Positions 6,056-6,377 of a stretch of 6,378 nt of DNA are shown piece by piece. The stretch is from NCBI GenBank assembly GCA_003448835.1, contig DLXM01000207.1:1-6378 (forward strand), in the 5' to 3' direction. A program made the translations under genes and the position numbers. Origin of the DNA: Bacteroidota bacterium (GTDB taxonomy: Bacteria; Bacteroidota; Rhodothermia; Balneolales; HLUCCA01). Position 1 is the first letter of the stretch. Every line of letters begins with the position of its first letter. The notes under the pieces were generated by a model. That model ran no database searches. It saw only the letters and a program-made list of their open reading frames with translations, and was not told the origin of the DNA.

Positions 6056-6190
6056 TTAGTTTGAACGGTGTGTAGATGATTGGGTCGTTGGAGAATCAAC
6101 GGTATATAAATTGACGAAACATATCCCTGAGAACTGAATCCTTTTAACTTTTATCGTTTGTTGTCTTTGTATAGATGTTGTTTTTTGCAT
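6056..6190 (-). CDS. Possible 44-residue small ORF before ilvB
   Basis: An ATG at 6190-6188 opens 44 codons ending at TAA 6058-6056, 13 bases before the ilvB start and in a different frame. AAAGG lies seven bases upstream, a better SD than ilvB's own. The product (MQKTTSIQRQQTIKV..., rich in Thr, Gln, Ser and Lys) has no membrane segment, no BCAA codon runs, and I do not recognise it. It could be a coupling ORF that feeds ribosomes to ilvB, or chance. Support is limited to the SD, the position and its link to the hairpins. Confidence 0.22.
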   Translation of the reverse strand: MQKTTSIQRQQTIKVKRIQFSGICFVNLYTVDSPTTQSSTHRSN

Positions 6191-6193
6191 TGT

Positions 6194-6211
6194 TTGACCT
6201 TTCGAGGTCAA
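6194..6211 (-). promoter_or_regulatory. Competing leader hairpin (segment 2 with segment 3)
   Basis: UUGACCU (6211-6205) pairs perfectly with AGGUCAA (6200-6194) around a CGAA loop. It uses the same bases as the right arm of the 6204-6263 hairpin, so the two folds exclude each other. The AGG of segment 3 is the only SD candidate for the ATG at 6190, so this fold would hide it. No U-tract follows, so it is not an intrinsic terminator. The same symmetric TTGACCT/AGGTCAA could instead be a DNA operator. Confidence 0.5.
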
Positions 6212-6263
6212 CTCCGACAAAAACTATTCTATGGTACTTGATAAGCTTTTTGGAATTGACCTC
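6204..6263 (-). promoter_or_regulatory. Long leader hairpin (segment 1 with segment 2)
   Basis: In the minus-strand RNA, GAGGUCAAUUCC (6263-6252) pairs with GGAGUUGACCUC (6215-6204) over 12 bp with a single U-G wobble. Past a three-base GUC bulge, AAAAA (6251-6247) can pair with UUUUU (6223-6219), extending the stem. It starts only six bases after the leader peptide stop, so a ribosome in the terminal Leu codons or at the stop would lie against segment 1. This is the geometry expected of an attenuator. The pairing is seen; the regulation is inferred. Confidence 0.55.
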
Positions 6264-6269
6264 TGTTTG

Positions 6270-6377
6270 TTAAGCTAGTAGTAGCTCAGAGATAATTCCT
6301 GATAGTAGAATACTAATCGAAATAATAATCACGTCGATAATCGAAATCTTACGAATGAAAGTAGAGTAGTTTTTCAG
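6270..6377 (-). CDS. Putative Ile/Leu attenuation leader peptide (start beyond window)
   Basis: A minus-strand frame is open from the right edge to TAA at 6272-6270, 35 sense codons. It begins LKNYSTFIRK and ends IIISISILLSGIISELLLA. Eleven codons are Ile, six Leu and one Val. The Leu codons include a CTA pair (6308-6303) and a CTA triplet (6284-6276). CTA looks rare in this operon: I count 1 CTA among 23 Leu codons in the visible leuA, against 5 of 6 here. Runs of Ile codons and rare Leu codons upstream of ilv or leu genes are the signature of leader peptides where the ribosome stalls when charged tRNA is short. The start is not seen; GTG at 6332-6330 would give 20 residues but lacks an SD, so an ATG past the edge is more likely. 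The main alternative is the C-terminus of an upstream membrane protein. Ile is also favoured by AT-rich DNA, but the rare CTA run is not. Confidence 0.55.
   Translation of the reverse strand: MKNYSTFIRKISIIDVIIISISILLSGIISELLLA
6273..6286 (-). repeat. Small hairpin over the leader's Leu codon triplet
   Basis: AGCUA-CUAC-UAGCU forms a perfect 5-bp stem with a four-base loop directly over the three CTA codons and the final Ala codon of the putative leader peptide. A translating ribosome would melt it. It is short, so the function is uncertain. Confidence 0.35.

What the first reader, a model, noticed from the sequence alone, without database searches (positions are those of the whole stretch)
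6270..6377. Ile/Leu-saturated leader peptide with a terminal rare-codon CTA triplet upstream of ilvB
The frame just upstream of the operon is packed with the very amino acids the operon makes: Ile-Ile-Ile, Leu-Leu, Ile-Ile, then Leu-Leu-Leu one codon before the last residue. Five of six Leu codons are CTA, which is 1 of 23 in leuA here. The E. coli leu leader likewise uses a run of Leu codons including CUA. Having Ile and Leu runs in one peptide fits an operon serving both branches (cimA for Ile, leuA for Leu). Such a short ORF would normally be missed in annotation.
Basis: partly seen in the sequence, partly recalled or inferred. Interest (0 to 1): 0.75.

Follow-up and report, generated by a model that had tools for sequence, protein, structure and literature searches.

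The report
Ile/Leu leader peptide switching ilvB translation
In front of the genes that make isoleucine, valine and leucine, this bacterium and its relatives carry a short frame packed with isoleucine and leucine codons, followed by RNA segments whose pairings exclude one another, a switch predicted to let a ribosome that stalls for lack of those amino acids free the next start codon, so control would likely act on translation and not on transcription.

Summary
The frame is real: 11 Ile, 6 Leu and 1 Val in 35 codons, 5 of 6 Leu codons CTA, directly ahead of ilvB-ilvN-ilvC-cimA-leuA; its start lies beyond the contig edge. All 54 distinct Balneolales ilvB loci of this clade with enough upstream sequence carry such a leader, as do 17 of 57 regions from the wider class. 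In the last 20 codons CTA supplies 244 of 306 Leu codons (7 of 137 in the window's genes). The new point is what follows. Segment 1 (inside the codons) pairs with segment 2 (just after the stop), 2 with 3, and 3 with 4, which lies against the next start codon. Cognate pairing beats permuted pairing for 1:2 and 2:3 (0/20000 each) and 3:4 (21/20000). In the window, RNA with the leader's last 45 nt folds as 1:2 + 3:4; without the leader it folds as 2:3, which leaves the start open. A fold-based scan finds no terminator before ilvB (0/74; a cruder scan flagged 5/74), but one before trpE in the same order (28/30). I read this as an erm-like translational attenuator sensing Ile/Leu starvation. It matches no Rfam family. 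Nothing was tested at the bench; in the wider class 1:2 is not supported.

The parts
6270..6377 (-). Ile/Leu-rich leader ORF, 5' end cut off by the contig edge
   Evidence: counterpart in 54 of 54 Balneolales loci, this one included
6321..6329 (-). Ile codon run ATT-ATT-ATT (control codons, inferred)
6276..6284 (-). terminal Leu codon run CTA-CTA-CTA (control codons, inferred)
   Evidence: CTA is 244 of 306 leader Leu codons, 7 of 137 in window genes
6287..6299 (-). segment 1, GGAATTATCTCTG inside the leader codons; pairs with segment 2
   Evidence: duplex -16.2 kcal/mol; 4 of 300 synonymous redraws as strong; MFE fold
6252..6265 (-). segment 2, CAGAGGTCAATTCC, 4 nt after the leader stop codon; pairs with segment 1 or segment 3
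6204..6215 (-). segment 3, GGAGTTGACCTC; pairs with segment 2 (12 bp) or, through TTGACCT 6211-6205, with segment 4
   Evidence: 2:3 covariation across families
6194..6200 (-). segment 4, AGGTCAA, 3 nt before an ATG
   Evidence: 7-bp hairpin TTGACCT-CGAA-AGGTCAA in the MFE fold
6056..6190 (-). second small ORF (44 aa, ATG 6190-6188, stop 6058-6056) whose start is the one next to segment 4; its stop lies 13 nt before the ilvB ATG
   Evidence: not present in the two nearest relatives L083, L084
4279..6042 (-). ilvB, acetolactate synthase large subunit (first gene of the operon)
   Evidence: TIGR00118
3580..4179 (-). ilvN, acetolactate synthase small subunit
   Evidence: TIGR00119
2557..3546 (-). 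ilvC, ketol-acid reductoisomerase
   Evidence: TIGR00465
953..2551 (-). cimA, citramalate synthase
   Evidence: TIGR00977
3..959 (-). leuA, 2-isopropylmalate synthase, cut off by the contig end
   Evidence: NF002086

Best explanation
The Ile/Leu-rich frame and the three pairings that follow it are predicted to form a translational attenuator of the ilv-leu operon that senses isoleucine and leucine supply. With amino acids plentiful (inferred), ribosomes clear the leader, segment 1 pairs with segment 2, and segment 3 is left to pair with segment 4 and bury the start codon behind it. When charged Ile- or Leu-tRNA runs short (inferred), a ribosome waiting on the ATT/CTA codons in and around segment 1 covers it, so segment 2 is free to capture segment 3 and the start codon opens. 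In 42 of 54 Balneolales loci that start is ilvB's own; in this window it is a 44-codon second ORF, and ilvB, 13 nt after that ORF's stop, would follow by reinitiation (inferred). Shown by sequence and computation: the frame, its conservation, its codon bias and the mutually exclusive pairings. Not shown: translation of the leader, stalling, and any effect on ilvB.
For: Leader in 54 of 54 distinct Balneolales ilvB loci with enough upstream sequence. CTA 244/306 Leu codons and ATT 344/405 Ile codons in their last 20 codons. Best 2:3 duplex -20.5 to -34.5 kcal/mol in all 54. Cognate vs permuted duplex energies, one locus per genus: 1:2 (19 genera) z -8.0, 0/20000; 2:3 (19) z -6.2, 0/20000; 3:4 (18) z -3.5, 21/20000; 3:4 among 34 f4 loci 1/20000. 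Pair counts: 2:3 on 37 rows, double-change cells 30 vs 16.8 shuffled, 0/500; 3:4 on 34 rows, 11 vs 5.0, 2/500. Window: RNA 6317-6176 folds as 1:2 + 3:4 (-33.6, z -4.35, 0/200 shuffles), RNA 6270-6176 as 2:3 (-24.3, z -4.6, 0/200). Withholding segment 2 raises the opening energy of the start region by 4.16 kcal/mol on average over 74 loci vs 0.95 with a shuffled start region; 59 of 74 exceed their shuffle. Fold-based terminator scan: 0 of 74 ilvB regions against 28 of 30 trpE regions of the same order.
Against: No expression data. Leader start codons are unclear: 45 of 74 have an in-frame ATG, the rest only GTG/TTG; five of the 74 run off the fetched sequence, the window among them. Within the f4 family 1:2 and 2:3 are too conserved to covary (permuted 1:2 within f4 364/20000), so their support is between families, where relatedness is not controlled. 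Two of the five measures are not significant for 2:3 on A2 (62/500, 78/500) and two for 3:4 (154/500, 349/500). Synonymous redraws match or beat 1:2 in more than 5% of draws in 7 of 19 genera. 1:2 has no support in 15 loci of the wider class (7307/20000). 3:4 is weak in several f3/f5 loci and ranks 18 and 16 of 18 in L098 and L104. Masking the last 30 nt of the leader raises start accessibility in only 31 of 54 loci. Shine-Dalgarno-like motifs are rare before genes here (12/136 and 15/121; control windows 4 and 5), so burying a Shine-Dalgarno is not a safe reading. The window's second ORF is absent in L083/L084. L090, one of the 74, has no ATG at the place used. A cruder terminator scan flagged 5 of 74 ilvB regions (L101, L084, L010, L152, L154) and 4 of 74 between leader and start.
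Confidence: 0.74

Rival explanations
1. Classical transcription attenuation: the Ile/Leu leader controls a terminator before ilvB, as in E. coli ilvL/leuL.
For: Leader with control codons and competing hairpins; trp leaders of the same order precede terminators. A cruder scan flags 5 of 74 ilvB regions.
Against: No TTTTT within 15 nt after segment 3 in 54 of 54 Balneolales loci (1 of all 74, L012, has one); fold-based scan 0 of 74 against 28 of 30 for trpE. The terminator would have to work without a U-tract.
Confidence: 0.12
2. Rho-dependent or mRNA-decay control: leader translation shields the transcript, and stalling or its absence exposes it; hairpins only modulate this.
For: No intrinsic terminator by the fold-based scan; the distance from leader stop to ilvB start differs between genera, from 79 to about 300 nt.
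Against: Does not explain why segments 1, 2, 3 and 4 change in concert or why segment 4 abuts a start codon.
Confidence: 0.1
3. The hydrophobic Ile/Leu peptide itself matters (a small membrane protein or an arrest peptide), and the RNA pairings are incidental.
For: Long hydrophobic C-terminal stretch; candidate starts put the peptide at about 50-85 residues in Balneolales; the motifs ISGI and IDLLIG recur.
Against: The recurring motifs are the codons of segment 1 that pair with segment 2, and they change with segment 2 between families; synonymous redraws weaken the pairing in 12 of 19 genera (at most 5% of draws as strong); the CTA bias is not needed for a peptide.
Confidence: 0.04

Closest known systems
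erm-type translational attenuators (ermBL-ermB; PMC8274638, passages seen)
   Same: Leader ORF, stalled ribosome opens one helix, alternative helix forms, start site of the next gene is freed.
   Different: Signal here would be lack of Ile/Leu-tRNA at rows of cognate codons and not a drug; target is a biosynthetic operon. Sequences were not compared.
ilvB1 transcription attenuator of mycobacteria and ilvBNC attenuators of Corynebacterium (PMC13236596 passages; PMC11857589 and PMC10272879 search listing only)
   Same: Leader ORF with branched-chain control codons ahead of ilvB, competing RNA folds.
   Different: The mycobacterial one ends in a terminator with a U-tract (passages); here none is found by the fold-based scan.
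LEU element and ilvB leader peptides of Actinobacteria (PMC1262725, passages seen)
   Same: Leader peptide with Leu run; in LEU the base stem touches the start site of leuA.
   Different: LEU pairs the Leu codons with the Shine-Dalgarno of leuA at the base of a pseudoknot, and the actinobacterial ilvB leaders have poly-U terminators; here four ordered segments with exclusive helices.
Cysteine-responsive polycysteine leaders of mycobacteria (Canestrari et al. 2020, seen only as cited in PMC13236596)
   Same: Amino-acid supply read by a leader ORF and passed on to translation of the next gene.
   Different: Other amino acid; anatomy not compared here.
Leader-peptide attenuation clues in Flavobacterium (PMC9723704, passage seen)
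   Same: Leader peptides before amino-acid operons in a neighbouring group.
   Different: Described there as acting on transcription elongation.

Membership tests
Ribosome-mediated translational attenuator (erm logic) | leader ORF upstream of the controlled start | tested here: met
   54 of 54 Balneolales loci; translation itself not shown
Ribosome-mediated translational attenuator (erm logic) | mutually exclusive 1:2 + 3:4 versus 2:3 pairing | tested here: met
   in Balneolales: permutation tests; covariation; window folds. In the wider class 1:2 fails
Ribosome-mediated translational attenuator (erm logic) | start region buried in the 3:4 state | tested here: met
   opening energy +4.16 vs +0.95 kcal/mol, 59 of 74 loci above their shuffle; a computed result only
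Ribosome-mediated translational attenuator (erm logic) | stalled ribosome on the leader frees the start | not testable with these tools
   needs toe-printing or ribosome profiling
Transcription attenuator of the ilvL/leuL/trpL type | leader peptide with cognate control codons | tested here: met
Transcription attenuator of the ilvL/leuL/trpL type | intrinsic terminator (hairpin plus U-run) before the first gene | tested here: not met
   0 of 74 by the fold-based scan with trpE at 28 of 30 as positive control; a cruder scan flags 5 of 74, with trpE at 8 of 30
T-box leader | match to an Rfam model | tested here: not met
   no Rfam family at gathering in the window or in 18 related loci, 15 of them ilvB loci; one sub-threshold snoRNA hit at E 0.35
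Known Rfam leader families of amino-acid operons | match to an Rfam model | tested here: not met

The most novel reading that the evidence does not exclude
A class-wide amino-acid switch that works on the start codon: Balneolales and their class control branched-chain synthesis by erm-like translational attenuation while the same order controls trp by terminators, and in several lineages (this window, L086, the f18 and f21 families, part of f3) the switch acts on a second small ORF that relays the signal to ilvB by reinitiation, with, in f18 and f21, a loop element complementary to that ORF's start.
Probability: 0.4. Interest if true: 0.75.

Novelty: new variant of a known kind. Interest (0 to 1): 0.62.

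Why it matters
Control of amino-acid operons by leader peptides is textbook for transcription (recalled); the listings of seven literature searches showed no description of such a switch on the start codon for this group (capped lists, open-licence papers only). It gives a set of natural variants in which segments 1 to 4 have changed together, so the switch can be tested by swapping halves. Having trp before terminators and ilv before a buried start in the same order offers a direct comparison of the two modes.

Tried and rejected
Extending the window to find the leader start: impossible, the window is the whole contig. A first terminator detector was too strict, because it allowed no internal mismatch: it found only 8 of 30 trpE cases and flagged 5 of 74 ilvB regions, 4 of 74 between leader and ATG; I replaced it by a fold-based one, and, because 300 nt upstream of the ilvB match can miss the hairpin where the leader lies far upstream (16 of 74 leader stops lie more than 300 nt away), repeated it from 60 nt inside the leader to the ilvB match (0 of 74). 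A hairpin at the window's own ilvB start, which I suspected by eye, is no better than shuffles (z -0.14). Segment 1:2 in the wider class: no signal. Shine-Dalgarno burial as the literal mechanism: weak, since such motifs are rare here. One search printed his leaders with the stop shifted by one base (script slip).

Rows dropped before counts: L085 and L096 (89 and 136 nt upstream), L105 and L108 (ilvB cut off), L002/L120/L122 (same contigs as L090/L004/L003), L109-L111 (other ilvB clade, 47% identity, no leader). Of the 57 class regions 17 were kept as leaders; L189 and L193 by resemblance although their scores are low (4.6, 3.4), and L147 left out although its score is 6.8. A2 used 37 of the 54 loci. 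In one search the 3:4 test left out L084.

Full report
What is there. On the minus strand 6377-6270 is a frame of 35 codons, open at the contig edge, with 11 Ile, 6 Leu and 1 Val, ending CTA CTA CTA GCT TAA. It precedes ilvB, ilvN, ilvC, cimA and leuA. The window is a whole contig, so the start of the frame is out of reach.

It is more than chance and it is conserved. Of 54 distinct Balneolales ilvB loci of this clade with enough upstream sequence, 54 have a frame ending 96-424 nt before the ilvB match with an Ile/Leu/Val-rich tail, scores 7.3 or more. Random 600-nt windows from two relatives reach 7.3 in 4 of 2000 and 8.5 in none; 60 trpE/hisG upstream regions reach at most 6.4. Three loci of a second ilvB clade (47% identity) have none. 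In the wider class 17 of 57 fetched regions carry one, and so do L006, L010 and L012. The order is read from named contigs that coincide with genome handles of the same order in contig length and place (SKXL01000167.1 Balneolales, SKYV01000125.1 Balneolaceae, CAJXMW010000005.1 Aliifodinibius sp.).

Codons. In the last 20 codons of the 54 leaders CTA is 244 of 306 Leu codons and ATT 344 of 405 Ile codons; the five window genes use CTA 7 times in 137. Substitutions in 34 f4 leaders fall mostly on third positions (0.142, 0.089, 0.235), and the gaps visible within the leader codons of that alignment are six bases long.

The switch. Within about eight bases of the leader stop comes segment 2, which pairs with segment 3 downstream at -20.5 to -34.5 kcal/mol in 54 of 54 loci. 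In f4 the codons around TTCTAATTTCTGGC pair with segment 2 over up to 15 bp; in the window GGAATTATCTCTG does. Segment 3 also pairs with segment 4 just before a start codon, for example TTGACCT-CGAA-AGGTCAA-aca-ATG in the window, and GCGG:CCGC, GCAG:CTGC, TGGT:ACCA in f4 relatives. With one locus per genus, cognate partners pair better than permuted ones: 1:2 0/20000 and 2:3 0/20000 (19 genera each), 3:4 21/20000 (18 genera). Pair counts show concerted change for 2:3 across families (30 vs 16.8 double-change cells, 0/500) and for 3:4 within f4 (11 vs 5.0, 2/500); two of the five measures in each are not significant. Within f4, 1:2 and 2:3 hardly vary and do not covary. Permutations and shuffles do not remove relatedness, so these numbers are not probabilities. 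Redrawing the leader codons synonymously leaves 1:2 as strong in at most 5% of draws in 12 of 19 genera, the window's among them (4 of 300), and more often in the other 7.

The window alone shows both states. RNA from 6317 to 6176, that is the last 45 nt of the leader onwards, folds at -33.6 kcal/mol as 1:2 plus 3:4, with the start codon enclosed (0 of 200 shuffles as good); RNA from 6270, without the leader, folds at -24.3 as 2:3 with the start codon unpaired (0 of 200). Over 74 loci (54 Balneolales, 20 others) withholding segment 2 raises the cost of opening the start region by 4.16 kcal/mol on average, against 0.95 when the start region is shuffled; 59 of 74 exceed their shuffle, 63 of 74 rise by more than 0.5; L090, counted here, has no ATG at the place used. 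In ensemble calculations masking the last 30 nt of the leader raises 2:3 in 38 of 54 Balneolales loci and start accessibility in 31 of 54; a ribosome at the stop codon instead gives lower accessibility than a stalled one in 37 of 54, and in 8 of 19 loci of the wider class.

Why translation and not transcription. No Balneolales locus (0 of 54) has TTTTT within 15 nt after segment 3; among all 74 only L012 does. The fold-based terminator scan finds none in 74 ilvB regions, but finds one in 28 of 30 trpE and 5 of 30 hisG upstream regions of the same order. Leaders with WW to WWWW precede trpE in 29 of 30, and the 14 printed sit before hairpins with T-runs of six or more. A cruder scan flagged 5 of 74 ilvB and 8 of 30 trpE regions. 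In 200 kb of each of two relatives hairpin plus T-run follows 7 of 136 and 5 of 121 genes (shuffled 2.4 and 0.4).

The second ORF. In 42 of 54 Balneolales loci an in-frame ilvB ATG lies within 125 nt of the leader stop. In the window the start there opens a 44-codon ORF that ends 13 nt before the ilvB ATG, and L086, the f18 and f21 loci and some f3 loci also have a small ORF there. A survey reports a peak of leader-to-gene distances of 11-14 bp in Bacteroidetes, which its authors link to reinitiation (PMC4833913, passages seen). The ORFs do not look alike between families (by eye), and the window's is absent in L083 and L084. In f18 and f21 an element in the 2:3 loop is complementary to the start of this ORF (no null model run for that pairing alone). 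This part is tentative.

Scope. A covariance model of the 2:3 hairpin, searched over 58 relatives, hits 27 genomes at E <= 0.01; every hit below 1e-4 lies just upstream of ilvB, two of them on the other strand of the same hairpin. Most of these are sequences the model was built from, so the informative part is the lack of strong hits elsewhere; three weak hits (E 0.002-0.007: G006, G041, G031:C585) lie elsewhere and were not followed. Rfam has no match at gathering and only a chance-level one below it. Weak points: start codons of the leaders are uncertain (45 of 74 with in-frame ATG); 1:2 is unsupported in the wider class, where I would guess that the ribosome at the stop codon covers segment 2 directly; nothing was measured.

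Prior work. PMC1262725, PMC13236596, PMC8274638, PMC4833913 and PMC9723704 were seen as passages; PMC11857589 and PMC10272879 only in a listing. The listings of seven searches showed no description of this element; the lists were capped and subscription journals are mostly not held.

Noticed in passing
L241 (G000:C224) and other hisG loci among L220-L249: His-rich leader ORFs upstream of hisG: 18 of 30 regions score 3.9 or more, the window's own genome highest (ends HHHVHHHHGHHHHA*). Little structure between leader and gene in several of those printed; some f4 loci have an inverted repeat GATGTCC..GGACATC inside the His codons, by eye.
   Followed up: partly
L250-L279, upstream of trpE: Leaders with WW to WWWW in 29 of 30 trpE upstream regions read, with terminators with T-runs in 28 of 30.
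   Followed up: partly
window 6056-6190; L086; L095, L097, L099, L100; f18 loci L172 and L186-L197: Small ORFs between the leader switch and ilvB, unlike each other between families; in L095, L097, L099, L100 they end in CATCTGA, complementary to CAGATG at the ilvB start, by eye.
   Followed up: partly
L172, L186, L189, L191, L192, L193, L197, L010, L152, L154: Loop element of the 2:3 hairpin complementary to the start codon region of the small ORF, e.g. GGTATCG with CGATGCC.
   Followed up: partly
A1 columns between segments 3 and 4 (34 f4 loci): A conserved A-rich stretch followed by TATATC in the loop of the 3:4 hairpin, unexplained.
   Followed up: no
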